Below, piece after piece: positions 1,494-54,458 of a stretch of 64,000 nucleotides of DNA (the stretch's first letter is position 1; every line of letters begins with the position of its first letter). A program made the translations under genes and the position numbers. Under the pieces are notes generated by a model, which was given only the letters and a program-made list of their open reading frames with translations, made no database searches and was not told the origin of the DNA. Origin of the DNA: Callipepla californica brunnescens (Eukaryota; Chordata; Aves; Galliformes; Odontophoridae). Location of the stretch: assembly GCA_023055505.1 (NCBI GenBank), contig JALIRH010000121.1, positions 763,501 to 827,500 of the forward strand, in the 5' to 3' direction.

Positions 1494-4400
1494 TAGGTAG
1501 CATAAAGTGTATGTAGGGTGAATTTGAGTTTTAGGGTCAAAGTTAAATTGTTAGTTTTAGGGTTAGGGTGAAGGATTGCTTTAGTTCTAGTATTAGGGTG
1601 TTTGGGGTTAGGGTTAGGGTAAGGATTTGGGGGTGGATTAGGTTTAGGGTCAGGTTTGGGGGAGTTTTGGGGTTAGGGTTAGATTTAGGATTAGGGTTAG
1701 CAAAAAAGTTGTTTTAGTTTTAGTTTAGGTTAGTGCTAGGATTAGGTTGAGTGTTCTTGTGAAGTTTAGGTTTAGGGTTAGGTTTAGGTTTAGATTGAGG
1801 TTTAGGGTAAGGAGTAGGGTTCATTTGACTTTTAGGGTCAGAGTAGAGTTAAGTCGTGTTAGGGTTAAGGTTAAGAACAGGATTCAGATTCCAATTAGGT
1901 TTTGGGTTCCTACTAGGGATAGGCCTCAAATTAGTGTTAAGGTTAGGGTTAGGGTTAGGTATAGGGAAAGGGTTAGTGTTAAGGCCAGGGCAAGTGTATG
2001 GTTTAGGGTAAAGATTGGATTTAGGGTTAGGTTTAGATGTAGGTTTGGTTTGATCGTTAGGGTGTGAGAAGGCACCGGCCTTGGATTTCATTTGGAGATT
2101 GGGTAAGGTTTAGGAATAGGAATAACATTGGTGTTTAAAAGATGATTAGTGTTAGTATTAGGGATAGGGTTACGGTTAGAGTTTAGTTAGGGTTGTTAGT
2201 TTTAGAGTGAGGGATAGGGGTATGGTTTGGTCTAGTACTTGGGTTAGGGTTTGGGATAGTCCTAGCATTAGTGTTAGGGTTAGGGTTCCGTTAGGGTTGT
2301 GGTAATCTGATGCTAGGTGTCGGGATTAGGGTTGTGCTTAAATGTGGGTTTGGTTTGAGGGTCAGAGTTAGGGTTAGGGTAGAGTTAGAATTAGGGTAAG
2401 AGTTAGGATTAGGTTTAGGATTAGGATAAAGATTAGGTTAGGATTAGTGTTGGCTTTAGGGTTGTGTCTGGGAGAAGGGTTAGTGTTAGGGATAGACTTA
2501 GGGTAAGAGTAAGTGTTAGGAATAGGCATAGGTTTTGGGAAAGTTTCAGAGTTTGGACTGGATTTATGATTAGGGTTAGGGACAAAGATTTTTTGAGATT
2601 TGTGATTAGATTTAGGGAGAAAAGTAGGCTGACTTGTGGTGTTAGCAGTAGGTTTAGGTTTAGGTTTAGGTTTAGGATTCCATTTGTATTTATTGATCGA
2701 GGTTGGGTTAGTTGGAGTGTAAAGGTCAGAGTAGGGTTAGGCCTTGGGATAGGGTTAAGGTTTGGAATAGGATTAGGATTCAAATGATGTTACGGGTTGG
2801 TGTTAGGGTTAGGGAAAGGTTAGGATCAGGGTTGAGGTCAGGGTTAGGTATAGGAAAAGGGTTAGTGTTAGGGCTAGGGCAATTGGAAGGGTTAGGCTTA
2901 GGCTTAGATATTAGGGTTAGGTTTAGGCGGAGGTTTGGTTCGAGTGTCAGGGTGAGAGAAGGGGTAGGCCTGGGGTTTGGTTTTGGGTTACATCATACAA
3001 ATCATCCCATACATTAGCTGGGGTGGGAGGTGCAAGGAACAGCCAGCAAAGTGCTGAGTTCATTCCAATCAGAGGACCTGAAGATCGGGTAGCTACTATC
3101 AAACCGTTTGTGTTGCCAATTCCGATGATATTTATGGGGCCCTGATGTTATGGTTCAGTGGGGAGTCACTATCAAGTCCAAACCCAATCCAAACCCCAAA
3201 CCTACTCCTATTCCTAAACCTTATCTTAACCCTAAACCAAACCCAAACCCAAGGCCCTCCCCTTCTCTCAGCCTAACACTCAAACTAACCTAAACCCGAA
3301 ACTAACCCTACATTTATCCTAATCTTATCCATATTCTAAGGCCTAACCCTACTCTGACCAGAAAGCTCATGTTGTCTAAAATCTACCCCTTACCTAAAAC
3401 CTAAATCGACAAAAAAACCTAACCCGAAACCTCAACCTAACTCTTCTCCTAACTAGAACACCAGCACTTCACCTTACCCTAACTGGAAACCTAGGACTAA
3501 ATCCTTACCTTGTCCAGAACCCTATTCCTAACCCAAACCAGAATTCTAACCTCTACCCTAACCAAAACCCTTCCCCTAAACCTAAACCTAATGCTACCCT
3601 CAACCAAACCCTAGCCCTAAATCCTACCCTAAAACCAACACCACGTTTAAGCTCAAACCTCAAGCCTCAAAGAAAGCATCAGATTACCGCAGATCTCACC
3701 TAACACTAACCCCAATCCAATCCCTACTACTAACCCCAAACCCAATCCAAACACCAAAACTATTCCTATTCCTAAACCTAACACTAAGCCAGAACCAAAC
3801 CCAAGGCCTACCCCTTCTCTCAGCCTGACACTCAAACTAACCTAGACCTGAACGCAACGCTAAATCAAATACTAAAACTCACCCTTAGCCAAGGCCCTTT
3901 TAGGACCCTTCCCTGGTCCTAAAACTAAAGAGAATCCTACCCCTTCCACTAAACCTTCATCTACATCCCTAACCCTTACCCTAAACCTAAATCTACACCA
4001 AAACCTAACCCTAACCCTAACATGTCTTCTAACTGTAAAACTAACGCTTCACCTAACCCGAACTGAAACCCCAGGACTAAACCTTACCTAACACCTAGCT
4101 ATATTCCTAACCCTATCCTGAAACCTAACATTAACCCTAACCCTAAAAACAACTTGGAACCAAACCCTAACCCTAACCTAACCCTTATCAGAACCCTAAA
4201 TCTAATCCTAACCGTTACCTCAATTTAACTCCAATTCTTCCTGAAATCTAAATGGGACCTTAAAACCAACCCCAGATTGAAGCCCAACCCTAAACCTAAC
4301 ACAAAGCATTAGATTACCACAGCCATCACCTAACTCTAACCCCAGCCTTAACGCTAATACTATCCCAAACACTATTCCAATTCCTAAACCCAACACAAAC

Positions 4401-6773
4401 CCAAAAACACAAAGCCTACAATTCTCACAGCCTAACACTGAAAGGAAACCTAAATCTTACCCTAACTCTAAAACTAATCCAAAGCATGACCACAATTTAA
4501 ACTCTAAATCTACCTTCAAACTAAAGCTGACCCTAACACCAACCTCAAGTAAAAGCCCAACCCTAAGCCTAACACAAAGCATTAGATTACCACAACGCTC
4601 ACCTAACTTCTAACCCCCACCCTAACACTAATACTAAAGCAATCAGATTCCAAATACTAACCCAATTCCTATTCTGAAACCCAAAACTATTCCAAAAACA
4701 AACCCAAGGCCTAACCTTTCTCTCACCCTAACAATCAAAGAAAACCTATTCCTAAACCTAATCCTAAATCTAGTCCTAACCCTAACCCTCACCCTTAATC
4801 TAACCCCAACCCCCACCCAGAAGCTAACACTTAGCAGTGTACAATACCTAAACGTACCCCTAATCCTTATCACTAAACCTAAAAGGAACCTGAAACATAG
4901 TGCTAAATCCGAACCCTAACCCTGAAGACTAACGCTAACAATGAACCAATTCCTATACCTTTTCCTTCCTCCAAATTGATTCCTAGCACTAACCCTAACC
5001 CTACGTTAACCCTATCCTAACCCTAACCCTAACCCTAGCCCTAAACTACATTAACCCTAACCCTAACCCTAACCCTAACCCTAGCCCTAACCTAACTCTA
5101 ACCCTAACCCTAACCCTAAACCTAATGCTAACCCTTACCCTACCCTAACCCTAACCCTACCATACCCTAACCCTAACCTACCCTAACCCTAACCCTAACC
5201 CTAACCCTAAACCTAAACCTAAACCTAACCCTAACCCTAATTCCTAACCCTTACCTTAACTGCATCACAATCCCTATCATAATTCTTACCCTAACCCTAA
5301 CCCTTACCTAACCCTAACCCTAACCCTAACCCTAACCCTAACTCTAACCTTAACCCTAACCCTAACCCTAACCTAACCCTAACCCTAATCCTAACCCTAA
5401 CCCTAACTCTAATTCCTAACCCTTACCTTAACTGTACCACAATCCCTATCCTAATTCTTACCCTAACCCTAAACCTTACCTAACCCTAACCCTAACCCTA
5501 ACCCTAACCCTAACCCTAACCCTAACTCTCACCTTAACCCTAACCCTAACCCTAACCTAACCCTAACCCTAACCCTAATTTTACCCTAACCCTAAGCATA
5601 CTCTAACCCTAACCCTAACCTAACCCTAACCCTAACCCTAACCCTAACCCTAACCCTAACCCTAACACTAACCCTAACCCTAAACCTAAACCTAAACCTA
5701 ACCCTAACCCTAACCCTAATTCCTAACCCTTACCTTAACTTTATCACAATCCCTATCCAAATTCTTACCCTAACCCTAACCCTTACCTAAACCTAACCTT
5801 AACCATAACCCTAACCCTAACCCTAACCCTACCCTAACCCTAACCCTAACCCTAACCCTACCCTAACCCTAACCCTAACCCTAACCCTAACCCTTACCCT
5901 AACCCTAGCCTAACCCAAACCCTAACCCTAACCCTACCCTAACCCTAACCCTAACCCTAACCCTACCCCTAACCCTACTTTACCCTAACCCTAATCCGAA
6001 CACTAACTCTAACTTTATTCCTTACCCTAACACTAATCCAATCCCGAACCCTAACCCTAATCCTAGCCCTAACTCTAACTTTATTCGTAACCCTACCCCT
6101 GATCCAAACAATAACCCTTACCCTAATCAAACCCTATCCCTATTCCTAACCCTTACCCTAACCGTATCACAATCCCTATCCTAACTCTTACCATAACCCA
6201 AACCCTAACCTAACCCTAACCCTAACCCTAACCCTATCCCTAACCCTTACCCTAACTCTAACCCTACCCTAACCTTAACTCTACCCTAACCGTATCCCTA
6301 CCCTAACCCTAACCCTAATCCTAGCCCTTACTCTAACTTTATTCCTAACCCTACCCCTGATCCAAACACTAACCCTAACCTTAATGTAACCCTAACCCTA
6401 TTCCTAACCCTTACCCTAACTGTATCCCATTCCCTATCCTAACTCTTACCATAACCCTAACCCTGATGCTAATGCTAACCCTAACCCTGAATCTAACCCT
6501 TACCCTAACCCTATCCCTTACCCAGAAGCTAACACTTAGCGTTGTACAATACCTAACCGTACCCTAACCCTATCCCTAAACCTAAAAGGAACCCAAACTC
6601 TAACCCTAAATCTGTCCCTGAGCCTAGCCTTCAACCTTACCCTAACCTTAACCCTAACCCTGTTCCATTCTCTAAACATATCTGTAAGCATTACCTTCAT
6701 CCTAACTCGAACTCTACCCTAACCCTATCCCTTTGACCCCAACACAAAACCCAGATTGAGCCTGACCCTAACC
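1494..6773. repeat. Macrosatellite unit 1 (A type, 5,280 bp)
   Basis: This is the reference unit. I place its start at the polarity switch where CCCTAA-like DNA becomes TTAGGG-like DNA (TAGGTAGCATAAAG at 1494). Internal order: G-strand degenerate telomeric DNA 1494-2989; retroviral protease fragment 2990-3178; C-strand degenerate DNA 3179 to about 4970, with three related subrepeats around AAAGCATYAGATTACC (near 3674, 4304 and 4577); near-canonical CCCTAA repeats from about 4990 to 5940; more diverged CCCTAA-like DNA to 6773. A box beginning CAGAAGCTAACACTTAGC occurs twice, at 4818 and 6533. Confidence 0.93.
2990..3178 (+). pseudogene. Retroviral protease fragment, unit 1
   Basis: This 189-bp stretch is the only part of the unit that is not telomere-like. 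In the frame starting at 2990 it reads through LAGVGG (3014-3031) and on to KPFVLPIP (about 3104-3127). It then shifts frame around GGGGCCC (3137-3142) and continues in another frame through DVMVQWG (3144-3164). The order matches the C-terminal half of a beta/alpha-type retroviral protease, ending just before RT. The catalytic Asp-Thr/Ser-Gly region is not present. The same bases in unit 7 run directly into RT, which confirms the origin. The fragment is broken by the frameshift and cut at 3178, so it cannot give an active enzyme. The 5' limit is approximate. Confidence 0.78.
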
Positions 6774-9700
6774 TAGGTAGCATAAAGTGTATGTAGGGTG
6801 AATTTGAGTTTTAGGGTCAAAGTTAAATTGTTAGTTTTAGGGTTAGGGTGAAGGATTGCTTTAGTTCTAGTATTAGGGTGTTTGGGGTTAGGGTTAGGGT
6901 AAGGATTTGGGGGTGGATTAGGTTTAGGGTCAGGTTTGGGGGAGTTTTGGGGTTAGGGTTAGATTTAGGATTAGGGTTAGCAAAAAAGTTGTTTTAGTTT
7001 TAGTTTAGGTTAGTGCTAGGATTAGGTTGAGTGTTCTTGTGAAGTTTAGGTTTAGGGTTAGGTTTAGGTTTAGATTGAGGTTTAGGGTAAGGAGTAGGGT
7101 TCATTTGACTTTTAGGGTCAGAGTAGAGTTAAGTCGTGTTAGGGTTAAGGTTAAGAACAGGATTCAGATTCCAATTAGGTTTTGGGTTCCTACTAGGGAT
7201 AGGCCTCAAATTAGTGTTAAGGTTAGGGTTAGGGTTAGGTATAGGGAAAGGGTTAGTGTTAAGGCCAGGGCAAGTGTATGGTTTAGGGTAAAGATTGGAT
7301 TTAGGGTTAGGTTTAGATGTAGGTTTGGTTTGATCGTTAGGGTGTGAGAAGGCACCGGCCTTGGATTTCATTTGGAGATTGGGTAAGGTTTAGGAATAGG
7401 AATAACATTGGTGTTTAAAAGATGATTAGTGTTAGTATTAGGGATAGGGTTACGGTTAGAGTTTAGTTAGGGTTGTTAGTTTTAGAGTGAGGGATAGGGG
7501 TATGGTTTGGTCTAGTACTTGGGTTAGGGTTTGGGATAGTCCTAGCATTAGTGTTAGGGTTAGGGTTCCGTTAGGGTTGTGGTAATCTGATGCTAGGTGT
7601 CGGGATTAGGGTTGTGCTTAAATGTGGGTTTGGTTTGAGGGTCAGAGTTAGGGTTAGGGTAGAGTTAGAATTAGGGTAAGAGTTAGGATTAGGTTTAGGA
7701 TTAGGATAAAGATTAGGTTAGGATTAGTGTTGGCTTTAGGGTTGTGTCTGGGAGAAGGGTTAGTGTTAGGGATAGACTTAGGGTAAGAGTAAGTGTTAGG
7801 AATAGGCATAGGTTTTGGGAAAGTTTCAGAGTTTGGACTGGATTTATGATTAGGGTTAGGGACAAAGATTTTTTGAGATTTGTGATTAGATTTAGGGAGA
7901 AAAGTAGGCTGACTTGTGGTGTTAGCAGTAGGTTTAGGTTTAGGTTTAGGTTTAGGATTCCATTTGTATTTATTGATCGAGGTTGGGTTAGTTGGAGTGT
8001 AAAGGTCAGAGTAGGGTTAGGCCTTGGGATAGGGTTAAGGTTTGGAATAGGATTAGGATTCAAATGATGTTACGGGTTGGTGTTAGGGTTAGGGAAAGGT
8101 TAGGATCAGGGTTGAGGTCAGGGTTAGGTATAGGAAAAGGGTTAGTGTTAGGGCTAGGGCAATTGGAAGGGTTAGGCTTAGGCTTAGATATTAGGGTTAG
8201 GTTTAGGCGGAGGTTTGGTTCGAGTGTCAGGGTGAGAGAAGGGGTAGGCCTGGGGTTTGGTTTTGGGTTACATCATACAAATCATCCCATACATTAGCTG
8301 GGGTGGGAGGTGCAAGGAACAGCCAGCAAAGTGCTGAGTTCATTCCAATCAGAGGACCTGAAGATCGGGTAGCTACTATCAAACCGTTTGTGTTGCCAAT
8401 TCCGATGATATTTATGGGGCCCTGATGTTATGGTTCAGTGGGGAGTCACTATCAAGTCCAAACCCAATCCAAACCCCAAACCTACTCCTATTCCTAAACC
8501 TTATCTTAACCCTAAACCAAACCCAAACCCAAGGCCCTCCCCTTCTCTCAGCCTAACACTCAAACTAACCTAAACCCGAAACTAACCCTACATTTATCCT
8601 AATCTTATCCATATTCTAAGGCCTAACCCTACTCTGACCAGAAAGCTCATGTTGTCTAAAATCTACCCCTTACCTAAAACCTAAATCGACAAAAAAACCT
8701 AACCCGAAACCTCAACCTAACTCTTCTCCTAACTAGAACACCAGCACTTCACCTTACCCTAACTGGAAACCTAGGACTAAATCCTTACCTTGTCCAGAAC
8801 CCTATTCCTAACCCAAACCAGAATTCTAACCTCTACCCTAACCAAAACCCTTCCCCTAAACCTAAACCTAATGCTACCCTCAACCAAACCCTAGCCCTAA
8901 ATCCTACCCTAAAACCAACACCACGTTTAAGCTCAAACCTCAAGCCTCAAAGAAAGCATCAGATTACCGCAGATCTCACCTAACACTAACCCCAATCCAA
9001 TCCCTACTACTAACCCCAAACCCAATCCAAACACCAAAACTATTCCTATTCCTAAACCTAACACTAAGCCAGAACCAAACCCAAGGCCTACCCCTTCTCT
9101 CAGCCTGACACTCAAACTAACCTAGACCTGAACGCAACGCTAAATCAAATACTAAAACTCACCCTTAGCCAAGGCCCTTTTAGGACCCTTCCCTGGTCCT
9201 AAAACTAAAGAGAACCCTTCATCTACATCCCTAACCCTTACCCTAAACCTAAATCTACACCAAAACCTAACCCTAACCCTAACATGTCTTCTAACTGTAA
9301 AACTAACGCTTCACCTAACCCGAACTGAAACCCCAGGACTAAACCTTACCTAACACCTAGCTATATTCCTAACCCTATCCTGAAACCTAACGTTAACCCT
9401 AACCCTAAAAACAACTTGGAACCAAACCCTAACCCTAACCTAACCCTTATCAGAACCCTAAATCTAATCCTAACCGTTACCTCAATTTAACTCCAATTCT
9501 TCCTGAAATCTAAATGGGACCTTAAAACCAACCCCAGATTGAAGCCCAACCCTAAACCTAACACAAAGCATTAGATTACCACAGCCATCACCTAACTCTA
9601 ACCCCAGCCTTAACGCTAATACTATCCAAACACTATTCCAATTCCTAAACCCAACACAAACCCAAAAACACAAAGCCTACAATTCTCACAGCCTAACACT

Positions 9701-32960: not shown

Positions 32961-34645
32961 TAGGTAGCATAAAGTGTATGTAGGGTGAATTTGAGTTTTA
33001 GGGTCAAAGTTAAATTGTTAGTTTTAGGGTTAGGGTGAAGGATTGCTTTAGTTCTAGTATTAGGGTGTTTGGGGTTAGGGTTAGGGTAAGGATTTTGGAG
33101 TGGATTAGGTTTAGGGTCAGGTTTGGGGGAGTTTTGGGGTTAGGGTTAGATTTAGGATTAGGGTTAGCAAAAAAGGTGTTTTAGTTTTAGTTTAGGTTAG
33201 TGCTAGGATTAGGTTGAGTGTTCTTGTGAAGTTTAGGTTTAGGGTTAGGTTTAGGTTTAGATTGAGGTTTAGGGTAAGGAGTAGGGTTAATTTGACTTTT
33301 AGGGTCAGAGTAGAGTTAAGTCGTGTTAGGGTTAAGGTTAAGAACAGGATTCAGATTCCAATTAGGTTTTGGGTTCCTACTAGGGATAGGCCTCAAATTA
33401 GTGTTAAGGTTAGGGTTAGGGTTAGGTATAGGGAAAGGGTTAGTGTTAAGGCCAGGGCAAGTGTATGGTTTAGGGTAAAGATTGGATTTAGGGTTAGGTT
33501 TAGATGTAGGTTTGGTTTGATCGTTAGGGTGTGAGAAGGCACCGGCCTTGGATTTCATTTGGAGATTGGGTAAGGTTTAGGAATAGGAATAACATTGGTG
33601 TTTAAAAGATGATTAGTGTTAGCATTAGGGAGAGGGTTACGGTTAGAGTTTAGTTAGGGTTGTTAGTTTTAGAGTGAGGGATAGGGGTATGGTTTGGTCT
33701 AGTACTTGGGTTAGGGTTTGGGATAGTCCTAGCATTAGTGTTAGGGTTAGGGTTCCGTTAGGGTTGTGGTAATCTGATGCTAGGTGTCGGGATTAGGGTT
33801 GTGCTTAAATGTGGGTTTGGTTTGAGGGTCAGAGTTAGGGTTAGGGTAGAGTTAGAATTAGGGTAAGAGTTAGGATTAGGTTTAGGATTAGGATAAAGAT
33901 TAGGTTAGGATTAGTGTTGGCTTTAGGGTTGTGTCTGGGAGAAGGGTTAGTGTTAGGGATAGACTTAGGGTAAGAGTAAGTGTTAGGAATAGGCATAGGT
34001 TTTGGGAAAGTTTCAGAGTTTGGACTGGATTTATGATTAGGGTTAGGGACAAAGATTTTTTGAGATTTGTGATTAGATTTAGGGAGAAAAGTAGGCTGAC
34101 TTGTGGTGTTAGCAGTAGGTTTAGGTTTAGGTTTAGGTTTAGGATTCCATTTGTATTTATTGATCGAGGTTGGGTTAGTTGGAGTGTAAAGGTCAGAGTA
34201 GGGTTAGGCCTTGGGATAGGGTTAAGGTTTGGAATAGGATTAGGATTCAAATGATGTTACGGGTTGGTGTTAGGGTTAGGGAAAGGTTAGGATCAGGGTT
34301 GAGGTCAGAGTTAGGTATAGGAAAAGGGTTAGTGTTAGGGCTAGGGCAATTGGAAGGGTTAGGCTTAGGCTTAGATATTAGGGTTAGGTTTAGGCGGAGG
34401 TTTGGTTCGAGTGTCAGGGTGAGAGAAGGGGTAGGCCTGGGGTTTGGTTTTGGGTTACATCATACAAATCATCCCATACATTAGCTGGGGTGGGTGGTGC
34501 AAGGAACAGCCAGCAAAGTGCTGAGTTCATTCCAATCAGAGGACCTGAAGATCGGGTAGCTACTATCAAACCGTTTGTGTTGCCAATTCCGATGATATTT
34601 ATGGGGCCCTGATGTTATGGTTCAGTGGGGAGTCACTATCAAGTC
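32961..34645. repeat. Macrosatellite unit 7, left part
   Basis: This is the G-strand half plus the protease fragment of the last unit. Unit homology ends after ATCAAGTC at 34645. From the next base the sequence continues as provirus, whereas units 1-6 continue with C-strand telomeric DNA. Private changes include AGCATTAGGGAGAGG near 33620, CAGAGTTAGG near 34307 and one silent A-to-T change at 34495 in the protease fragment. The rest of the unit resumes at 41612. Confidence 0.9.
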
Positions 34646-34690
34646 AGATTTTCGGGAGGGGCCATTGAGAGGTGCGACGCCCTTAAGCTA
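34457..34690 (+). pseudogene. pro: Protease C-terminal fragment joined to pol, unit 7
   Basis: This is the same fragment as in units 1-6, but here it continues past the 34645 cut point. The frame used after the internal frameshift stays open through the protease/RT linker to about 34685, where TAA would end it. The RT sequence then continues in a different frame. The one base that differs from the other units (34495, A to T) is silent in the protease frame. This copy shows what the amplified fragment is. Active-site residues lie upstream and are missing. Confidence 0.78.
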
Positions 34691-35451
34691 ATATGGAAAA
34701 CAGATACCCCTAGATGGGTGGATCAATGGCCCCTTCCACTAGAAAAACTTGGCGCCCTCCAAGACTTGGTAGCGGAACAATTAGCAAAAGGACATACTGT
34801 ACCTCCACTAATCCTTGGAACTCACCTGGATTTGTCATTAAGAAACAAACTGGTCAATGGCGCTTGTTCCATGACCTCAGAAAAATGAATGATGCTCTGG
34901 AAAATATGGGAGCCCTTCAACCAGGCCTCCTGTCACCCACTATGATTCCCCGAGACTGGCATTTGACTGGCACTGATCTTCAAGACTGCTTTTTTAATAG
35001 TCCATTACACCCTGAGGATGCCCCTCCATTTGCTTTTTCAGTTCCAAGCATCAACATGCAAGCCCCGTTGCAGAGATACCAGTGGGTTGTGCTGCCACAA
35101 GGAATGAAAAATAGCCCCACCATTTGTCAGTGGTATGTAGCTAAAGTGCTTAGCCCCATTCCAGACACAATGCCAAATGTTTTATCGTATCATTAGATGG
35201 ACGACATCTTAGTGGCCGCGCAACATCACGAGATCATGGAGGAAGCAGTAGCCCTCCTTACAACTGCTGTTAATTCGGCAGGTTTCTGTATTGCGCCTGA
35301 AAAAATGCAGAAAACATCACCATGGAAATATTTAGGCTGGTGCATCAGAGCCCAGACTATCATTCCCTAGCCCTTACAAAGACAAACTGATGTGAAAAAT
35401 TGACACGATGTACAAAAATGGTTGGGATCAATTAACTGGGTCTGAGCGCTC
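34646..35451 (+). pseudogene. pol: Reverse transcriptase fingers and palm, broken
   Basis: RT copies viral RNA into DNA. The RT start (RWVDQWPLPLEKL near 34712) is read in the frame of 34625-34888. After a frameshift near 34805 the frame of 34714-35196 takes over, with the WRLFHDLRK-type finger motif, the first catalytic Asp in TDLQDCFF (about 34966-34989) and a typical LPQGM...SPTICQ block (about 35092-35130). A TAG at 35194-35196 falls exactly where the Tyr of the YMDD motif belongs. Met-Asp-Asp follow immediately in the same frame. Further in-frame stops are TAG 35368-35370, TGA 35401-35403 and TGA 35443-35445. It is clearly a dead gene, and the frame can be followed across the stops. Confidence 0.88.
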
Positions 35452-36020
35452 TTGGGTATCTCTAATGCAGACTTGTATCCTCTTTTGGAACTACTGAAAG
35501 GGGATTCTGATTTACACTCTCCCTGCCGTCTTGGCTCTGAAGTGGCTAGTGCCTTGCAAAAAGTTGCTGCAGCTAGCACTAACAGACAAGCTCATCGGTG
35601 TGCCCCGGAGTTACCTTTTTTTCTAATGATCCTCAACCCTGCTCGACAACCTCATGCGCTAATTTTTCAGTGGGATTTTCAAAGGCCAGACCCACTATTC
35701 ATTATTGAATGGATTTTTTTGCCAAACCAGTTGACAAAGACAATCCTGACACAGCATGAGATGTTTGCTTCCCTGAGAATCAAAGCTAGGCAGCGCTTGC
35801 TGATGTTATCAGGGGTAGACTTTTCCTCTAGTTGTTTACCTGTGACAAATGTGTATTTACAATGGCTTGATCAGCAAGCAGATGCCTTTAGCATGGCATT
35901 GGCAAGCTATACAGGCAGCCTTACTTCCCACGCACCGTCACACAAGCTATTGAACCTCAATGTTCACTTCACATCCACACCAAAAAGAAGTGATCAGCTG
36001 CTGCAGGCCCTTACCAGATT
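35452..36020 (+). pseudogene. pol: RT thumb and connection region
   Basis: The same frame as the palm stays open from 35446 to 36126. It encodes the thumb and connection part of a beta/alpha-type RT, with a helical stretch around ADLYPLLELLKG and a segment PLFIIEWIFLP near 35692-35724. The region ends at about 36020, where RNase H homology moves to another frame. The remaining codons to 36126 in this frame are a shadow of RNase H. There is no catalytic motif here. The polyprotein could not be made intact because of upstream stops. Confidence 0.78.
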
Positions 36021-36360
36021 ACGGATGGGTCTGGAAGATCACACAAATCAGTTATTTGATGGTGGGATAATCAACAGAAGCAATGGGATTCGGATATTGA
36101 AATTGTTTCTGGTTCTCCACAAATAGTGGAACCAGCTGCTGTTGTCCGAGTTTTTTGGAAATGGTCCACACCTTTCAATCCTATTACCGACTCAGCTTCT
36201 GTTGCAGGAATTGTTCAGCGAGCAGAAGCATCCATATTACGCAATATTTCTCACTCTTCATTGTTTATTTTGTTCCAGGAACTTTTTTTTTTTAGACTCC
36301 CGCACTCATCCTTATTTTGTAATGCACATCCGCTCACACACATCTTTACCTGGTTTCACG
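36021..36360 (+). pseudogene. pol: RNase H domain, frameshifted
   Basis: RNase H removes viral RNA from RNA-DNA hybrids. The TDGSG motif with the first catalytic Asp begins at 36021, in a frame shifted from the connection domain. A TGA at 36057-36059 interrupts it, and the frame then continues through ITDSASV (about 36183-36203), which holds the Asp of the third catalytic position. The expected Glu motif is poorly preserved around 36126. A frameshift at the T10 run (36285-36294) moves the C-terminal part (HIRSHTSLPGF near 36325-36357) to another frame. The T-run is probably a slippage indel. Confidence 0.78.
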
Positions 36361-36379
36361 GCAGAAGGGAATCTCAAGC

Positions 36380-37250
36380 TGATATGTCCGTGTTTTACCA
36401 GACCGAATAGCGCAAGCTAAACTTAGCCACTCCTTCTTTCATCAGAATGCTGGAGGTCTTAAACGACAGTCTGGGCTTACCTCCCAACAAGCATCAAACA
36501 TTACAGCGGTATGTCCCGACTGCCAGAGGCATTCTTTCCCATCAATAGCAGGGGGGGTTAACCCCAGAGATCTGCAGAGCCTCCAGCTATGGCAAATGGA
36601 TGTCACACATTACCCATGGTTTGGTAAGCTGAAATATACACATTCCTCGATTGATACTTTTTCCGGAGCTTTATTTTCCTCTTGTCATACAGGAGAAAAG
36701 GCACGAGATATTCGCAAGCGTTTGCTGCGTGCTTTTGCTACATTAGGTATCCCTTCCCAATTAAAAACAGATCATGGTCCTGCATATACCTCCGCTGCGA
36801 CAAAAGCCTTCCTGGATTCTTGGGGCATTATGCACATCACCGCGATCCCTCATTCCCCTCCAGGTCAATTGAGCGGTCACACCAATCTTTAAAGCGTCTA
36901 TTAGCACAACAGAAAGGGGGAATGGGAGCTTCCCCTCCTGAGGAGCGACTACATAAAGCTCTTTATGTTTTCACTTTTTGAATTCTTCTCTGCTAGATAC
37001 CAATCCCCCGATAGTCCGACATTTTAGTTCGAATATCACATTGGAAAGAAGAATCAAGGCTCCGGTGTTGATTCGCCACCCAGAAACAGGTATGATAATG
37101 GGGCCATATCCTCTTGTCACATGGGGGAGAGGTTATGCTTGTGTCTCCACAGGAAAAGGCCCCAGGTGGATTCCTGCGAAGAACGTGAAACCATACCGCG
37201 AGGAACAGACTTGGTCGACAACAGATGAAAACACAACCAAGGAAGGATGA
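36380..37250 (+). pseudogene. pol: Integrase, all three domains, frameshifted
   Basis: Integrase joins viral DNA to the host chromosome. The zinc-binding domain is complete: two His near 36428 and 36440, and CPDC at about 36512-36523. The first catalytic Asp lies in WQMDVTHY (36590-36613) and the second in KTDHGPAY (about 36764-36787, with His where Asn is usual). The catalytic Glu is preserved in the ERSHQSLK block (about 36871-36894), but in another frame because of a frameshift near 36865. A second shift at TTTTT near 36975 leads to the frame of 36978-37250, which encodes the SH3-like DNA-binding C-terminus (WGRGYACVSTGKGPRWIPAK). The gene ends at TGA 37248-37250, overlapping the env ATG. 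Confidence 0.88.
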
Positions 37251-38414
37251 GACCAGCTACTGTATGGACTTGACTTCTTGAAATTTCAGGACTCTCTACT
37301 GGTTTTATTACCCTCCCAAAAACGAATGTGTGGCTTACACTTGCTAATATTACTCATCAGGAAACACTTTGCTTAGCCACTGCAACTGCACAAAATCCCT
37401 TCTCTACCCGCTTGGTGGGCTTTCCCATAGACGAGTGGCCAATCCCTGGTCCCTCACGAGCAATCTTTACTGGCACAAATTCGGTAGATAATTGGGATGG
37501 ATGGGTTCCATATCTTCCGTCTGCCAAATTAGAGCCACAAGAAATAGATTTCTTAGGATCTATAAAAATGGACTTCTGCCTGAGATTCCATTCTACTGGA
37601 AAAAATAAAACCAAACTATGGGATGTCAGTCCCGTAGACACAGCCATCAATAACCAAACTCTGTGGTGTAATTACACCTCACCCAGCCTTTCAAAATCAG
37701 TAAATGCTCCTTTACAGTTACCAGATGGAGTTTTCCGTAGTTGCGCTGACCGGGCATGGCCTGCCATTCCTTCTTACATTAGAGGTGGGCCATGTAGTCT
37801 CGGGCGTTTAACCATCCTTACCCGAAATGAGACAACTGTCTTGCAATGGAGAAAGAAATATTCTCATCACCGTTTTAGGAGAATGACCCACACCTTCAGA
37901 TCAGATTGTGATGATAACATGAAGTTTTGGAACAGGGAGACCATAGGAGCCGTTTCCTTTTTCACACCGCAGGTTGCTGTTGCTAAAGCTTTGGCAACAC
38001 TGAACAAACTGGGTTCTTGCTTAGCAAAACAAGGAAATGCCACTAGTTTAGCTTTAACAGGTCTTTTACTTGATGCGGACAGTGTCAGACATGCTGCGCC
38101 ACAAAATTGCGCTGCTACTGATTTCCTACTTCTGGCGCAAGGCCATGGCTGGGAGGATTTCGAAGGAATGTGCTGCATGAACCTGTCAGAACATTCCGTT
38201 TCAATTCAAGCAAGTATCAAGACCATACGGGATGGAGTGAAGAAACTGCAGGAACAGAGGGATTGGGACTGGTTGGACAAATGATTCTCGGGATGGGGGT
38301 CTCACCGGATGGCTCCACAGTATCTTAAAAATGATGTGCTACATTGCGATGATCGTTGTAACGCTTTTGCTGTTACTTCCTTGCATTTTACAATGTGCGC
38401 AAAAAGATGATTGA
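37247..38414 (+). pseudogene. env: Envelope glycoprotein, alpharetrovirus-like, broken
   Basis: Env mediates receptor binding (SU) and membrane fusion (TM). The ATG at 37247 overlaps the pol stop (ATGA). A TGA at 37271-37273 breaks the leader, after which the frame is open for 318 codons to TGA 38282-38284. Visible parts are seven N-glycosylation sequons, an RFRR furin-like site near 37870, a fusion-peptide-like segment near 37950-38000, and an immunosuppressive-domain-like helix near 38101-38150. In the CX6CC disulphide motif the first Cys is Trp (TGG 38150-38152), while the CC pair is intact. The membrane anchor (about 38331-38390) and tail lie in another frame, ending at TGA 38412-38414. 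At about 210 residues, SU is shorter than usual for alpharetroviruses, suggesting an internal deletion. Confidence 0.87.
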
Positions 38415-38456: not shown

Positions 38457-38823
38457 TGGGTGATGGCAAAAGTGGGAGTCAGACGGAACTGTTAGCTAAG
38501 CAGGAATCAGGCCATAAACCTTGGACGTAGGCTGTGTAAAGATAAGCTGATAAGCTTGAGACAACCATGTCTAAGGAGTGAAAAGAAACAGAAGACAGTA
38601 ATGGATAGCAATAAGAAACTGTTTGTTTAGATGACTAGGAGTGTTTTATATTCTTGACCTGTTAACACTGAGGAGTGTAAATTCCCTCAATTAGATCCTT
38701 GTAGCTTCCCCCAGTTAGATCCTAACACACACTGCTTCTCTGTCTATCTAAGCTTTGAGTTGTTGCTTAATAAATGGAACATTAGCTAGCATCAAGCTGG
38801 GTTCCCGACCCTTCATTGTAACA
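38457..38823 (+). mobile_element. 3' LTR of the provirus (367 bp)
   Basis: The LTR begins TGGGTGATGG right after the polypurine tract and ends ATTGTAACA. A TTTATATT box at 38644-38651 may serve as TATA and AATAAA lies at 38769-38774, giving a short R-U5 of typical length. The next base starts a GGGTC minisatellite. No 5' LTR is present for comparison, so age cannot be estimated here. Confidence 0.82.
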
Positions 38824-38957
38824 GTCTGTGGGTCTCTATGGGTCCTGCTATGGGTCCCAATATGGTTTGCTGTGGGTCACTGTGGGTCCTGCTATGGGTC
38901 GCTGTGGGTCTCTATATGCCCCAGGAGATCCCTAAGGGGCTGCAGTTCCCCTCCACG

Positions 38958-38977
38958 CCACCAGGGGAGGGGGCGCT
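38958..38977 (+). promoter_or_regulatory. CTCF-like motif, interrupted copy
   Basis: CCACCAGGGG followed by AGGGGGCGCT: the CTCF core is present but appears split by a short insertion. It is followed by an E-box CACGTG near 38980. Confidence 0.4.
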
Positions 38978-39269
38978 CTCACGTGATGTCTCTGTGCCTT
39001 CCTATTGCTCTCTGAGGTTTTCTATGGGTCGCTGTGGGTCCCGGCATGGGTTGCTTTGGGTCAAGCTGTGGGTCACTGTGGGTCGCTGTGGGTCTCGCTA
39101 TGGGTCACTGTGGGTTGCTGTGGTTTGCTATGAGTCTCTATGGGTTGCTGTGGGTCGCTGTGGGTCACGCTATGGGTCCCAATAGGGTTCGCTGTGGGTC
39201 GGTGTGGGTCCTGCTATGGGTCTCTACGTGCCCCAGGAGATCCCTAAGGGGCTGCAGTTCCCCTTCACG

Positions 39270-39284
39270 CCACCAGAGGGAGCT
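39270..39284 (+). promoter_or_regulatory. CTCF-like motif, one mismatch
   Basis: CCACCAGAGGGAGCT fits the vertebrate CTCF core CCASYAGRKGGCRSY at every position except A for C at position 12. It lies in the same block of the minisatellite as the other two copies. Confidence 0.45.
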
Positions 39285-39516
39285 CTCACATGATGTCGCT
39301 GTGTCTCTACGGCTTCCTATTGCTCTCTGTGTTTTCCTATTGGGCGCTATGTGTCGCTATGGGTCCCAATATGCTTCGCTGTGGGTTACTGTGGGTCACT
39401 GTGGATCGCTATGGGTTGCTATGGATCGCTTTGGTTTGCTGTGGGTCCTGCTATGGGTCTCTGTGGGTCTCTAAGGTTCCCAATGGATCCCTAAGGGGCT
39501 GCAGTTCCCCTCCACG

Positions 39517-39531
39517 CCACCAGGGGGCGCT
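39517..39531 (+). promoter_or_regulatory. CTCF core motif, full match
   Basis: CCACCAGGGGGCGCT matches CCASYAGRKGGCRSY at all positions. Binding is inferred from the motif alone. Confidence 0.55.
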
Positions 39532-39830
39532 CTCACGTAATGTCGCTGGGTCTCTAGGGCTCCTTATTGCTATCAGTGGTTTCCTATTGGGCGCTATGGG
39601 TCGCTGTGGGTCACTATGCGTCGCTATCGATCTCTGTGGGCTGCTACGTTTTGCTGCGGGTCTCTATGGGACGCTATGGGTCACTGTGGGTCTTGCTATG
39701 TGTATCCATGGGTCGCTATGGGTCGATGTGGATCGCTATAAGTCTCTACATGTTGCTAAGGGTTGCAATGGGTCGCTGTGGGTCATGCTGTGGGTGTCTG
39801 TGGGTCCAGCTATGGGTCATTGCTCTGCCC

Positions 39831-40275
39831 CACACATCTGCCCCAAACCCCACACCTGGACCCACAGATCTGCCCCACATCCCACAGCTCTGCCCCACGG
39901 CTCAACCCCAATCTGCACATACCTGCCCCACATCCCACAGCTCTGCCCCACATACCTACCTGCCCCACAGATCAGCCCCACATTCCACAGCTCTGCCCCA
40001 TGGATCAGCCTCACATCCCGCAGCTCAGCCCCGCATCTGAGCCCCACATCTGCTCATACCTGCACCACACCTCCGCCCCCCAACCGCCACAGCTCTGCCC
40101 CACAGATCCACCCCACAGCTCAGCCCCGCATCCAACAGCCCTGCCCCAATCAGTGCACCTGGACCCACAACTCTGCCCCACAGCTCTGCCCCAAGCCTGG
40201 ACCCCACACCCACGACCCCAGCCCCAAATCCCTGCCCCATAACCCCATAACCTGACCCCGGCCCCATAACCGCCC
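39831..40275. repeat. C-rich degenerate repeat (CTGCCCCACAGCTC type)
   Basis: The region is made of imperfect 10-20-bp blocks such as CTGCCCCACA, CATCCCACAG and CCCCATAACC. Frames on both strands are open because stop codons are rare in this composition, and no protein family is recognisable. It probably expands the same kind of sequence seen at 63330-63540. Confidence 0.75.
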
Positions 40276-40620
40276 CTCCCGCCCTGCCACTGACCACGTG
40301 CTCTGCTTCCAGCTCCGCTTCCACCATGCGGCCGCTTCCGGCCCCACGGCACAGCTCGGCCAATCACAGCACAGATCGGCAGCGGAAAGGGCAGGGTGTG
40401 GGGTAGCGAGGCGGAACAGTGCCACTGGAACGAGGCACGATGACCGGAAATGACTGAAACTTCTGGGAGCGCGGATTTCCGGCAGCGAGCGGGACATTGT
40501 GGGTAAGGAGGCGGAAGCACGCCTGGAAGTGGGAAACCGGAAGCCAGTGGGAAGCGAGTGGGCATGGCCAACGTTAAGCCTCGCATTCGAGCCACGCCCC
40601 AACGTGCAATGACCCGAAGT
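40276..40620. promoter_or_regulatory. CpG-rich promoter-like block
   Basis: CpG density rises sharply compared with the flanks. The block contains a CCAAT box (GGCCAATCACAG near 40368) and several ETS-type GGAA sites (CTTCCGG near 40336, CCGGAAAT near 40443, TTTCCGGC near 40477, CCGGAAGC near 40537). This is typical of a housekeeping CpG-island promoter. No convincing first exon follows on either strand within the window. A short frame from ATGGCCAACG at 40564 runs into ACCCCAAA repeats and is not persuasive. The block may be a displaced promoter relative to the SGF29-like fragments on its right. Confidence 0.55.
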
Positions 40621-40773
40621 GACCCCGATGTGACGCAAAATGACCCCAAATATCCCAGATTACTTCCAACACTTCTTGGAAGCGCTGCGCCCCAAAGGGC
40701 CCCAAAATGACCCCAAAGTGACCCCAAAACCCTATAACGACCCCATAAGGACCATATCAAATCCCCTATGGGG
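40621..40773. repeat. GACCCCAAA-type degenerate repeat
   Basis: This is imperfect tandem sequence of the form GACCCCAAAATGACCCCAAAGTG. The same material resumes between the two SGF29-like copies (about 40817-40890). It holds no gene. Confidence 0.7.
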
Positions 40774-40816
40774 TCACTTCTTGGTGTCTCTGCAGGCCAC
40801 GACGCAGCACTGCACC
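40774..40816 (-). pseudogene. SGF29-like C-terminal end, partial second copy
   Basis: On the minus strand this short piece encodes VQCCVVACRDTKK followed by TGA at 40776-40774. It duplicates the last 13 or so codons of the better copy at 40915-41031 and keeps a stop where that copy reads on. Its upstream exon part is missing and replaced by ACCCCAAA repeat. It is a partial tandem duplicate. Confidence 0.6.
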
Positions 40817-40914
40817 CCAAAGTGCTCCAGAGTGACCCCAAAGTGACCGTAAATCGGCCCTAATGACCCCAAAAAACCTAAATCCTGGAACGGCCCCAGA
40901 ACGGCCACACGGGG

Positions 40915-41031
40915 TCGCTTCTTCTTGGTGTCCCTGCAGGCCACAACGTAGCACTGTGCGACGTTGAGTGGCGATGAATATCCGTCAGCGTACAACGTGT
41001 CCTCAAACAGCACCGAGGAATCATCCTGCGG
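40915..41031 (-). pseudogene. SGF29: Last coding exon of an SGF29-like gene
   Basis: SGF29 is the tandem-Tudor subunit of the SAGA/ATAC complexes that reads H3K4me3. The minus-strand exon starts after an AG acceptor (CTATAACAG) at 41031. It encodes PQDDSSVLFEDTLYADGYSS and then PLNVAQCYVVACRDTKKK, which I recognise as the C-terminus of the second Tudor region. Where the family ends after Lys-Lys-Lys, this copy has CGA (40917-40915). The second copy has TGA after Lys-Lys, so the frame reads on into repeat and stops at 40776-40774. Upstream exons should lie to the right, but telomeric unit sequence begins at 41612, so only a gene end is present. It is either a translocated fragment or the edge of a rearranged gene. 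Confidence 0.72.
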
Positions 41032-41242
41032 CTGTTATAGAGCAATTATGGGGTCAGGGGGAATTTATGGGGTCGGGAGGAAAGCAATGGGGTCAGGGGG
41101 AATTATGGGGTCAGGGGGAATTTAAAGGGTTGGGGGGGGAACAGGGGAACTAATAGGGTCAGAGGGGAAATTAATGGGGTCACGGGGGGAACAGGTGAAT
41201 TATGGGGACGGGGGGAAAGTAATGGGGTTGGGCTGATGTGAC
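41032..41242. repeat. Intronic GGGGTCAGGGGGAATTATG minisatellite, part 1
   Basis: G-rich imperfect tandem repeats of about 18-20 bp lie between two SGF29-like exon copies. This is the kind of intronic minisatellite seen in GC-rich avian microchromosome genes. Confidence 0.75.
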
Positions 41243-41272
41243 CTCAAACAGCACCGAGGAATCGTCCTGCGG
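41243..41272 (-). pseudogene. SGF29-like exon start, third copy (10 codons)
   Basis: After an AG acceptor (TAGAACAG) the minus strand encodes PQDDSSVLFE, the first ten codons of the exon at 41031. It then diverges at GAG followed by GT (41242-41241). The break coincides with a possible donor dinucleotide. The flanking acceptor region is also duplicated, so this is a tandem partial duplication of intron plus exon start. Confidence 0.6.
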
Positions 41273-41611
41273 CTGTTCTAGGGCAATTATAGGGTCGGGG
41301 GGAATAGGGGAAGTAACAGGGTCAGGAGGTGAAGTAATGGGGTCACAGGGGGGAATTGATGGGGTTGGGGGGGAAATTATAGGGTCATGGGGGGGAATTA
41401 TGGGGTCGGGGGAAAATTGTGGGGTCAGGGGGGAACTAATGGGATTTGGGGCTGACATTTGGGGGAAATAATCGGATTCTGGGGCTGATAATGGAGATTT
41501 TGGGGTGGAATTGCAGGATTTTGGCGCTGAGTTTTGGGGTCAGATATCGACATTATAGGGCTGGGTTATGGGGTCCATTCGTGCCCTTTTGGGGCCGGGT
41601 TCTGTGCTGTG
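41273..41611. repeat. Intronic G-rich minisatellite, part 2
   Basis: GGGGTCRGGGGGAA-type repeats continue and fade from about 41460 into AT-richer G-rich sequence (ATTTTGGGGCTGA). I find no further exon. The segment ends at GGTCCT (41612-41617), the breakpoint with macrosatellite DNA. Confidence 0.7.
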
Positions 41612-42231
41612 GGTCCTAAAACTAAAGAGAACCCTACCCCTTCCACTAAACCTTCATCTACATCCCTAACCCTTACCCTAAACCTAAATCTACACCAAAA
41701 CCTAACCCTAACCCTAACATGTCTTCTAACTGTAAAACTAATGCTTCACCTAACCCGAACTGAAACCCTAGGATTAAACCTTACCTAACACCTAGCTATA
41801 TTCCTAACCCTATCCTGAAACCTAACGTTAACCCTAACCCTAAAAACAACTTGGAACCAAACCCTAACCCTAACCTAACCCTTATCAGAACCCTAAATCT
41901 AATCCTAACCGTTACCTTAATTTAACTCCAATTCTACCTGAAATCTAAATGGGACCTTAAAACCAACCCCAAATTTAAGCCCAACCCTAAGCCTAACACA
42001 AAGCATTAGATTACCACAGCCATCACCTAACTTCTAACCCTGACCCTAACACTAATACTAAACCAAAACAGATTCCAAATACTAACCCAATTCCTATTCT
42101 GAAACCCAAAACTATTCCAAAAACAAACCCAAGGCCTAACCTTTCTCTCACTCTAACAATCAAAGAAAACCTATTCCTAAACCTAATCCTAAATCTAGTC
42201 CTAATCCTAACCCTCACCCTTAATCTAACCC
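41612..42231. repeat. Macrosatellite unit 7 resumes (C-strand half)
   Basis: From GGTCCTAAAACTAAAGAGAA the sequence again matches the unit (unit 1 from 3915). Compared with units 1-6 it passes directly from the second to the third AAAGCATTAGATTACCACA subrepeat (near 42000) and so lacks about 270 bp. More point differences are visible than among units 1-6 (for example CCCTAGGATTAAACC near 41766), fitting an edge copy that escaped homogenisation. It is interrupted by a solo LTR after AACCC at 42231. Confidence 0.88.
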
Positions 42232-42805
42232 TGTCAACGGTTTACCGGGCTGGATCGGCCCGGTTCCGTGACGATTGCTGCGGGGACCCACGGACCCACG
42301 CCCCAGGAAAGGGCAAGGAAAAAGGGAAAAGGGAAAAGGGAGATGGGCATAGAAACAAAACAGCGGCAACGATCTGAGGAGGAAAGCTAATTTACTAAAT
42401 AAGATATTAGAAAACAAAATAACACAATATAATACAATGTAATTGGAATTGAGGCTAATGAATCAAACAAAATGAGCAAGAGAGAGTGTCCGATAAACCG
42501 AAGGCCTTACGCTAACGCTGAAGGCGATACGGCAGCGAGCACCCACTGCTGAGTCGATCCCGAAGGAAAGAGAGTGTCCCGTGACCGCTGAGGGTTTTTA
42601 TCTGTTCCCTCTGAGCGGAAAACACGTAAAAATACAAAGCATCGCAAAGTCCTCTGGGGAATGTAGTGCTTCTTCTCTTCTCAGACAGGTATACCTGGAA
42701 TTATCAATGATCTATGGAGCTGGAGTATTAGCTCTTCAACTCCTAATGCAATACATGATGTTATGATGTGGAATACCAGTACCAAAAAATCATAAAACCA
42801 TGACA
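42232..42805 (-). mobile_element. Solo LTR (574 bp) with AACCC target-site duplication
   Basis: The element begins TGTCAACGG and ends CCATGACA, with terminal inverted TGTCA/TGACA. It is flanked by AACCC on both sides (42227-42231 and 42806-42810). Removing it with one duplication restores the TCTAACCCCAACCCCC seen in units 1-6 (near 4799), so insertion and empty site are both visible. Orientation is probably minus: that strand starts TGTCATGG, has an ATAAAA box (plus 42596-42601) and a possible AGTAAA signal (plus 42391-42396) towards its end. No internal coding region remains. The 5-bp duplication fits ERVL-like or some gamma-like elements. Confidence 0.82.
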
Positions 42806-43240
42806 AACCCCAACCCCCACCCAGAAGCTAACACTTAGCATTGTACAATACCTAAACGTACCCCTAATCCTTATCACTAAACCTAAAAGGAACCTGAAAC
42901 ATAGTGCTAAATCTGACCCGAACCCTAACCCTAAACTTCATCCTATTCCCAAACCTCGCCCTATTCAGAACCCTATTCCTAACCCGAACACTAACCCTTA
43001 CTCTATTACTAACTTGAAGACTAACCCTAACAATGAACCAATTCCTAAACCTTTTCCTTCCTCCAAATTGATTCCTAACACTAACCCTAACCCTAATCAA
43101 ACCCGAACCCTATTCTTAACCCTAAATCTAACCGTATCCCAATCCCTAACTCTTACCATAACCCTAACCCTAAGTCTTACTCTATCACTAACCCTAACCC
43201 TACATTAACCCTATCCTAACCCTAACCATAACCCTAACCT
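42806..43240. repeat. Macrosatellite unit 7, continuation to array edge
   Basis: The unit continues with the CAGAAGCTAACACTTAGC box (42820). It contains two segments absent from units 1-6: about 90 bp near 42917-43010 and about 100 bp near 43095-43200. The second is bounded by direct repeats of CACTAACCCTAACCCTA. Homology to the unit fades near 43240 into a different degenerate telomeric array. Confidence 0.78.
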
Positions 43241-52200: not shown

Positions 52201-53475
52201 TAACACTAACCCCTAACCCTACCCTAACCCTAACCCTACCCTACCCCTGACTCAAACCCTACCCTTAACCCTCCTTAACCCTACCCTAACCCTTACCTAA
52301 CCCTAACCCTACCCTAACCCTTAACCCTAACCCTACCCTAACATTTACCCTAACCCCTAACCATAACCCTAACACTAACCCTAACCCTAACCTTACCCTA
52401 CCCTAACCGTGACCCTAACCCCTAACCCCAACCCATAAGCCCTAACCCCAAACCCTTACCTAACCCAAACCCTACCCTAATCCTAACCCTAACCCTGCCC
52501 CTAACCCTAACACAAACCCCTAACCCTACCCTAGCCCTACCCTAGACCTAACCCTACACTAGCCCTAACCCCTAACCCCTAACCCAAACCCTAACCTTAC
52601 CCTAAACCTACCCTAACCCTACCCTTACCCTAACTCTAACCCTAACACTAACCCTACCCTAACTCTTACCCTATCCCTAACGCTAAGCCCTAACCCTGAC
52701 ACTGACCCTAACTCCTAACCCTAACCCTTACCGAAAATTCTAATCCAACCCTAACCCTAACCCTACCCTAACCCTACCCATACCCCTACCCCTAACCCTA
52801 CACTAACCCTTACCTATCCCTAACCCTAGCCCTACCCTAACCCTAACCCTTACCCTAACCCTTACCTATCTCTAACCCTACCCTAACCCTTAACCCTAAC
52901 CCTTAACCCTAACCCTACCCTAACCCTCCAATCTAACCCTAATTCTACTCTAACCCTAACCCTACTCTAACCCTAAACCCTAACCCTACCATAACCCTAT
53001 TGATGGACCCTAGTTCTACCCTAACCCTAACCCCTAACCCTAACACCTAACCCTAACACCTAACCCTTTGCTAACCCTATTGATGGACCCTAACTGTAAC
53101 ACTAACCCTACCCGTAATCCTACCCCTAACCCTTACCCAACCCTAACCCTAACCCTTACCCTACCCTAACCCTTACCCTAAACCTAACCCTACCCTAATT
53201 CTAACCCTAACCCTGACCCTATCCCTAAACCTAACCCCTGACCCTAACCCCTAACCTTAACCCCTAACCCTAACCCTACCCTTACCCTAACCCTACACCC
53301 TAACCCTAAACCCTACCCTAACCTAACCCTAACCCTACCCTAACCCTAAAACCCTAACCCTACCTCACACCCTACCCTTAACCCTGACCCTAATACTTAC
53401 CCTAACCATTATCTAACCCTAACCCTACCCCATCCCTACCCTACCCCTTAAACCTAACCCTAACCCTACCCTAAC
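43241..53475. repeat. Degenerate C-strand telomeric array (about 10.2 kb)
   Basis: The array is CCCTAA-derived with abundant variants (CCCTACCCTAA, CCCCTAACCC, CCCTGACCC, CCCTTACC). It contains no long frames on either strand and no macrosatellite unit. Large local duplications are visible: the block from CCTGACTCAAACCCTACCC near 44034 recurs near 47888, and CCACCAGATCCCTAA recurs at 46231 and 48717. It ends abruptly at CCCTAAC 53475 against an octamer satellite. Confidence 0.9.
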
Positions 53476-54458
53476 GGTGTCAGAATGTGACAGTCACAAT
53501 ATCAAAGTATCACAATGTTAGAATGTCAGTGTCACAAGGTTAGAATTTCACAATGCCAAAATATCACAATGTGAGAATCTAAAAATGTCACAGTGTCAGA
53601 ATGTCACAATGCAAAAATGAAAGACTGTCACAATACCAGAATGTAAAAATTTCACAGTCAGAATATTACAGTGTCACAATGTCAGAAGGTCGCATTTTCA
53701 GAATGTCAGTACGTGAGGATGTCAGAACGTCACAATGTCACAAAGTGAGAATATGAGAATGTCAGAATAACAGAATGTCAGAATGTGAGAACGAAATGAT
53801 GTCAGAATGTGATTATGTGAGAATGTCAGAATTTCAGAATGTCAGAATGTCACAACGTCAGAATGCAAGAATATCAGAATGTCCCAAGTTGAGAATGTCA
53901 CAATGTATCTGAATAGAAGAATGTAACATTGGCACAATCTCAGAATGTAACAAAGACATCACATCATAATGTCAGAATGTCAGAATTTCACAACTTCACA
54001 ATGTCACAATGAGAGAATTTCAGAACGCAGCAATGTAACAATCTGAGAATGTCACAATATCAGATTGTCAGAATGTCAGAATGACAAAATGTGAGAATAT
54101 CACAATATCACTATGCCAGATTCCCAAAATGCCACGATGTCACAATCTCAGAATGTCAGAATCACAGAATTTGACACTGCGAGAATATCACAAAGTCACA
54201 AAGCCACAATGTCATAATATCACAATATCACAATGTCAGAATGTCACTATGGCAGATTGTCAGAATGCCAGAACATCAGAAGGTGAGAATATAAGAATGT
54301 CAGAATGTCACAATGTCACAATGAGAGAATATTAGAATGTCACAATGTCAACATGTCAGAATGTGAGAAAGGGAGAATGTCATGATGTCAGAATGTCTTA
54401 ATGTCAGAATGTCAAATCGTCACAACCTCCCAATTAAAATTCAGGGAATATGACTGTG
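53476..54458. repeat. Octamer satellite AATGTCAG/AATGTCAC, block 1
   Basis: Period-8 tandem DNA with the dominant words AATGTCAG and AATGTCAC and many single-base variants (AATGTGAG, AATATCAC, AACGTCAC). Because 3 x 8 is 24, the frames repeat every eight residues (QNVRMSQC type). These are not genes. The last bases CTGTG (54454-54458) are the left target duplication of the next element. Confidence 0.9.

What the first reader, a model, noticed from the sequence alone, without database searches (positions are those of the whole stretch)
2990..3178. Each telomeric unit carries the same truncated retroviral protease fragment, and the edge unit still connects to the provirus
All seven copies share the fragment and its internal frameshift, with only one silent base difference noticed. 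In units 1-6 it stops at the same base (3178 and equivalents). In unit 7 it runs on at 34645 into RT, integrase, env and LTR. The amplified units therefore descend from a provirus-containing locus, and unit 7 preserves the parent junction or lies closest to it.
Basis: partly seen in the sequence, partly recalled or inferred. Interest (0 to 1): 0.87.

Follow-up and report, generated by a model that had tools for sequence, protein, structure and literature searches.

The report
Telomere-like satellite carrying a virus scar
In this genome assembly, likely a bird's, a 5-kb telomere-like repeat ends in the same 189-base piece of a broken retrovirus at 2,220 places, likely because one tandem duplication broke inside that provirus and the product then spread as a giant satellite.

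Summary
Observation confirmed: 2990-3178 is identical in units 1-6 and differs by one base in unit 7, where it runs on into pol, env and an LTR-like end. The assembly holds 2,809 telomeric-arm|protease joins; 2,220 fragments end at one fragment|B junction and 586 run on into pol, so unit 7 is one of about 586 such edges. On two contigs, 20 of 20 arrays carry one provirus-linked copy, at the 3' end. In the gap-free locus on C20 the order is B-A-C-T-protease->pol: B lies upstream. Native left CTAACCC|CAAACCC, native right CAAGTC|AGATTT and unit CAAGTC|CAAACCC are what one tandem duplication would leave; no deletion in the provirus is needed. An edge copy is therefore expected. Unit 7's arm shares derived bases with its neighbour, so it is no pristine parent. 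All this lies in megarepeats of roughly 75 kb (about 40 Mb in all, a rough estimate). No outgroup was searchable; the species is unidentified.

The parts
1500..2989 (+). T arm of the first copy: degenerate TTAGGG-strand block directly before the fragment
   Evidence: arm precedes the fragment in 16 of 16 fetched loci
2990..3178 (+). 189-bp protease piece, copy 1 (others at 8270, 13517, 18803, 24044, 29253)
3179..8458 (+). one complete unit B-A-C-T-fragment (the next end at 13705, 18991, 24232, 29441 and 34645)
   Evidence: junction fragment|B
3179..3914 (+). segment B, absent after the seventh copy; upstream of the arms in loci C20 and C6
3915..4990 (+). segment A of the unit; empty site for the solo LTR
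   Evidence: empty in 11 of 11 units
34457..34645 (+). seventh (edge) fragment copy, one mismatch, continuous with pol
34646..37250 (+). broken pol pieces: RT, thumb, integrase
37274..38414 (+). broken env, Avian_gp85 match
38461..38822 (+). 3' LTR-like end (TG...CA), identical in both megarepeats
38823..41611 (+). CTATGGGTC-type minisatellite and GC-rich DNA after the provirus
41612..43080 (+). A', a second diverged copy of A, split by a solo LTR at 42233-42810
43074..53475 (+). 10.4-kb CCCTAA array of the megarepeat
53478..63246 (+). TGTCAGAA and GCTATGGGGCA tandem repeats of the megarepeat
   Evidence: also in megarepeat M1

Best explanation
The 189-bp protease piece is the right-hand end of a roughly 5-kb unit that one tandem duplication likely made when its right breakpoint fell inside a 5'-truncated provirus; 2,220 places in the assembly carry that same junction and 586 carry uninterrupted protease-to-pol sequence. 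Shown: the order B-A-C-T-protease->pol in the gap-free locus C20; the same arm|protease join in 16 of 16 fetched loci; a unit junction made of the native right-hand side and the native left-hand side with one shared base. If the duplicated segment ends inside the provirus, the rightmost copy of every array must run on into pol, as seen in 20 of 20 arrays on two contigs. Inferred: the junction formed once; unequal exchange then changed the unit number per array and homogenised neighbouring units and edges; and the whole megarepeat spread over many contigs.
For: Counts close: 2,782 fragment cores, 2,809 arm|fragment, 2,220 fragment|B, 586 fragment->pol, 587 RT pattern, controls 0. Breakpoints: native left in C20 and C6, native right and unit junction; 4,791 bp from B1 to fragment base 189 in C20. 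Array polarity 20 of 20 on C47 and C49. Sixteen of 16 loci have the arm, 9 run into pol, 7 into B. The solo LTR of A' is absent from 11 of 11 units, so unit A did not come from the provirus-side A'. C6, C20 and C28 lie outside the array copies in the tree.
Against: The tree of 29 arm-plus-fragment copies does not group the B-linked copies (7 label changes; 106 of 500 shuffles as low; internal support low), so the single origin rests on the shared junction, not on the tree. Neighbouring megarepeat M1 has no B upstream; its left end starts in unit-type A-tail beside a 590-bp satellite, so M1 is not the native order. C6 has an N gap between B and the T arm, and the C28 stretch starts inside A, so only C20 shows the whole native order without a gap. 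The array listing used exact matches only.
Confidence: 0.83

Rival explanations
1. The fragment|B junction arose by a large deletion or non-allelic exchange between two already tandem megarepeats, from inside one protease to the B of the next copy, rather than by a local duplication.
For: It gives the same end product, and megarepeats are tandem on C121.
Against: It needs tandem megarepeats before any unit existed; the singly listed loci C6, C20 and C28 have the native arrangement outside such arrays as far as they were read.
Confidence: 0.1
2. The fragment sat between the telomeric arms first, and a provirus joined the edge copies later by recombination through the 189 bp.
For: Edges and units exchange sequence locally.
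Against: The diverged loci C6, C20 and C28 are provirus-linked; the RT pattern (587) is as frequent as fragment->pol (586), so no separate donor provirus was seen at this identity; B precedes the arms in C20 and C6.
Confidence: 0.03
3. The near-identical units and edges are largely an assembly artefact.
For: Units u1-u11 differ by only 0-6 bases in about 1,680 bp of arm plus fragment, which is hard to assemble.
Against: Units have their own indels, two alternating types in the C part and spacings of 5,204-5,286 bp; the same junctions recur on many contigs with different unit numbers.
Confidence: 0.04

Closest known systems
Chicken mega-telomere arrays (cytogenetics; passages in PMC3063227 and PMC11667572)
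   Same: Very large telomere-sequence blocks, hundreds of kb to Mb, variable in size between individuals.
   Different: Known by hybridisation signal, not by this sequence; here telomere-like DNA is degenerate, on both strands, and alternates with satellites and a provirus.
TTAGGG and ERV sequence at chicken centromere cores, and the 5,648-bp HINT1W tandem repeat (passages in PMC9974502)
   Same: Telomeric sequence, an endogenous retrovirus and a unit of about 5 kb in avian tandem arrays.
   Different: There (TTAGGG)n lies inside CNM arrays, the ERV copies are full length, and the 5.6-kb unit holds a gene; no provirus breakpoint is described in the passages seen.
Satellites derived from LTR retrotransposons in Lathyrus (abstract and outline of PMC7004042)
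   Same: Tandem repeats that carry LTR-element sequence and expand in certain chromosome regions.
   Different: There short arrays inside the elements expanded; here the element gives 189 bp and a breakpoint to a telomere-like unit.
Betaretrovirus-like endogenous retroviruses
   Same: Integrase, RT and protease pieces score best against solved chains 5cz2, 7sr6 and 1nso (that these are MMTV, HERV-K and MPMV is recalled).
   Different: The env piece matches Avian_gp85; the 5' half is missing and all frames are broken.

Membership tests
Macrosatellite / nested tandem repeat | Head-to-tail copies of a kb-scale unit | tested here: met
   11 fragment|B units and one edge copy on C121, spacing 5,204-5,286 bp; 2,220 junctions in the assembly
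Macrosatellite / nested tandem repeat | Higher level of repetition around the units | tested here: met
   M1 and M2; 20 of 20 samples of C121 match the stretch 683501-857500, one of them only in part at 80%
Interstitial telomeric sequence | Telomere hexamers away from a chromosome end | tested here: met
   38% of a unit covered by exact hexamer rotations, 2% after shuffling; embedded in satellite DNA. Chromosome position itself not known
Mega-telomere | Location of the array on the chromosomes where mega-telomeres were mapped | not testable with these tools
   contigs carry numbers only; the mapping papers were not held
Betaretrovirus-like provirus | pol related to betaretroviruses | tested here: met
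   (family names of the best chains recalled)
Betaretrovirus-like provirus | 5' LTR, gag and paired target-site duplication | tested here: not met
   T arm replaces the sequence before the protease in 16 of 16 loci; so it is a 5'-truncated remnant
Tandem duplication product | Junction joins native right end to native left end | tested here: met

The most novel reading that the evidence does not exclude
This repeat is the sequence identity of bird mega-telomere blocks: tens of Mb of roughly 75-kb megarepeats, each with a 5-kb telomere-like sub-array started by one break inside a provirus, so that mega-telomeres are macrosatellites rather than long true telomeres.
Probability: 0.27. Interest if true: 0.82.

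Novelty: new variant of a known kind. Interest (0 to 1): 0.62.

Why it matters
The birth of a satellite is rarely caught with its parts still visible. Here the native order, the breakpoint and thousands of products lie in one assembly, and the virus piece is a clean tag that separates unit expansion (fragment|B) from megarepeat spread (fragment->pol). If the arrays prove to be mega-telomeres, an open cytogenetic question becomes testable by sequence.

Tried and rejected
Fragment truncated by a deletion in the provirus: rejected, since B lies upstream of the arms in C20 and C6. Unit 7 as the unique parent: rejected. M1 as a never-amplified ancestor: undecided; its left A-tail is unit type, which fits a collapsed array but does not prove it. 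The DNA mode of the genome search gave 0 candidates for a sequence with about 2,800 copies, so that silence meant nothing and patterns were used. Rfam gave no match in the window. Species identification through lysozyme did not complete. The first tree had wrong labels through an offset error and was redone; one search prints junctions 10 bases off, its BLAST rows are right. Searches failed as scripts. Nine paper searches listed no paper whose title or shown abstract describes this repeat; most subscription journals are not held.

Full report
WHAT IS IN THE WINDOW. The 189-bp piece at 2990-3178 recurs at 8270, 13517, 18803, 24044 and 29253 without a difference and at 34457 with one. Before it lies a 1.5-kb degenerate TTAGGG-strand arm (T); after it, in units 1-6, come degenerate CCCTAA-strand blocks (B, then A), a simpler CCCTAA array (C) and the next T. 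Exact telomere hexamer rotations cover 38% of a unit and 2% of its shuffle. In the seventh copy the sequence runs on from 34645 into pieces of RT, thumb, integrase and Avian_gp85 env in broken frames, and an LTR-like end (my reading). The protease identity is weak alone (14.8 bits, under the Pfam cut-off) but is backed by solved proteases at E about 0.003 and by its place before RT.

WIDER CONTIG. The window is C121:763501-827500 of an unnamed 1.085-Gb assembly; C121 has 946,835 bp. Its array starts near 736,242 and has 12 fragment copies, 11 followed by B and the last by pol. A second megarepeat copy, M1, lies directly to the left and has one fragment copy, at 700,589, which runs on into pol. 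Homology of M1 and M2 ends at 736,241 and 828,834. They differ by 4 in 955, 0 in 1,002 plus 2 gaps, 3 in 671 and 7 in 1,191 bases of pol and env pieces, 0 in 362 of the LTR, 16 in 1,782 of the GC-rich part and 0 in 578 of the solo LTR. Twenty of 20 samples of 1.5 kb along C121 match the stretch 683501-857500, all in the same orientation; 19 at 90% or more, one at 80% and only in part.

GENOME-WIDE COUNTS. A 53-base core (window 3037-3089, up to 3 mismatches) occurs 2,782 times, the arm|fragment join 2,809 times (up to 3), the fragment|B junction 2,220 times (up to 2), fragment->pol 586 times (up to 2) and an RT pattern 587 times (up to 3; same). Reversed controls were 0. The counts of the two endings, 2,806, equal the arm|fragment count within 0.2%; mismatch limits differ, so this is agreement of totals, not a copy-by-copy check. 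On C47 and C49, 20 of 20 arrays have exactly one provirus-linked copy, at the 3' end in the array's own direction; 6 of 20 have no B unit and the largest has 15. That listing holds exact matches only, so copies with mismatches are missing. Edge spacing there and on C76 and C81 has medians of 73 to 92 kb, likely too high for the same reason (one search lists further RT copies on C81). About 586 times 75 kb gives roughly 40 Mb: an estimate.

HOW THE UNIT AROSE. Sixteen loci, the first listed, were cut out: 16 of 16 have the T arm before the fragment, 9 run into pol and 7 into B. Those on C6, C20 and C28 are each listed once, are provirus-linked and are the most diverged (fragment 98.4, 95.8, 98.9%); the listing is capped, so further diverged copies on these contigs are not excluded. 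In C20 the order is B-A-C-T-protease->pol without a gap. In C6 B is also upstream, but an N gap precedes the T arm; the C28 stretch starts inside A. Native left of B reads CTAACCC|CAAACCCAATCC in C20 and C6, native right CAAGTC|AGATTTT, the unit junction CAAGTC|CAAACCCAATCC. This is what a tandem duplication from B1 to fragment base 189 (4,791 bp in C20) leaves, with one shared base, and it explains without further events why the rightmost copy runs on into pol. A second check: the solo LTR of A' is absent from 11 of 11 units and present on the provirus side of both megarepeats; A' matches unit A at only 88-89% with a sub-repeat difference. Unit A therefore likely comes from the left-hand A.

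IS UNIT 7 THE PARENT? Its protease->RT continuity is native, but so is that of about 585 others. Its sequence is not primitive: it shares two arm variants only with u11 among 13 copies on C121, and has C at fragment position 18 where C6, C20, C28 and M1 have A. In a tree of 29 copies C6, C20 and C28 lie outside, unit 7 goes with u11 (81/82) and one C47 edge with C47 units (81/95); most inner support is low, and the B label is not clustered (7 changes, 106 of 500 shuffles as low). Position 39 T is in 3 of 8 array edges and 0 of 18 B units, so edges may also keep a lineage of their own across contigs.

WHAT REMAINS OPEN. When the T arm replaced the 5' half of the provirus; whether units or megarepeats came first; the species. 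Avian_gp85 and genome size suggest a bird; no call named it. That these arrays are chicken-type mega-telomeres is a proposal. PMC3063227 and PMC11667572 (passages) describe mega-telomeres; PMC9974502 (passages) reports TTAGGG and an ERV at chicken centromere cores; PMC4992247 (passages) says megatelomeres were missing from an older assembly; PMC7004042 was seen as abstract and outline, PMC12954441 as passages.

Noticed in passing
42233-42810: Solo LTR (TG...CA) in A' with a 5-bp repeat AACCC on both sides; identical, 578 of 578, in megarepeat M1; empty site in 11 of 11 units.
   Followed up: yes
1-34456, C parts of the units: Two alternating unit types: in the C part u2, u4, u6, u8, u10 agree closely, and u3, u5, u7, u9 agree closely, a dimer-like higher-order pattern.
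   Followed up: partly
39830-43080: Mosaic divergence between megarepeats: A' and solo LTR show no difference, the adjoining GC-rich part 16 in 1,782; suggests conversion.
   Followed up: partly
L018 1304-10000 and L017 1-3617: A 590-bp satellite (with a 1,771-bp higher period) left of M1, also upstream of B in loci C20 and C6.
   Followed up: partly
1500 and 2990 in each unit: Strand switches: CCCTAA-strand to TTAGGG-strand at about 1500 and back across the fragment; T and C parts match each other inverted at 64-87% in BLAST.
   Followed up: partly
43074-53475: 10.4-kb CCCTAA array, 76% covered by exact telomere hexamer rotations.
   Followed up: no
fragment position 39: T only in edge copies, on both C121 and C47 (3 of 8 array edges, 0 of 18 B units), as if edges keep a lineage of their own.
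   Followed up: partly
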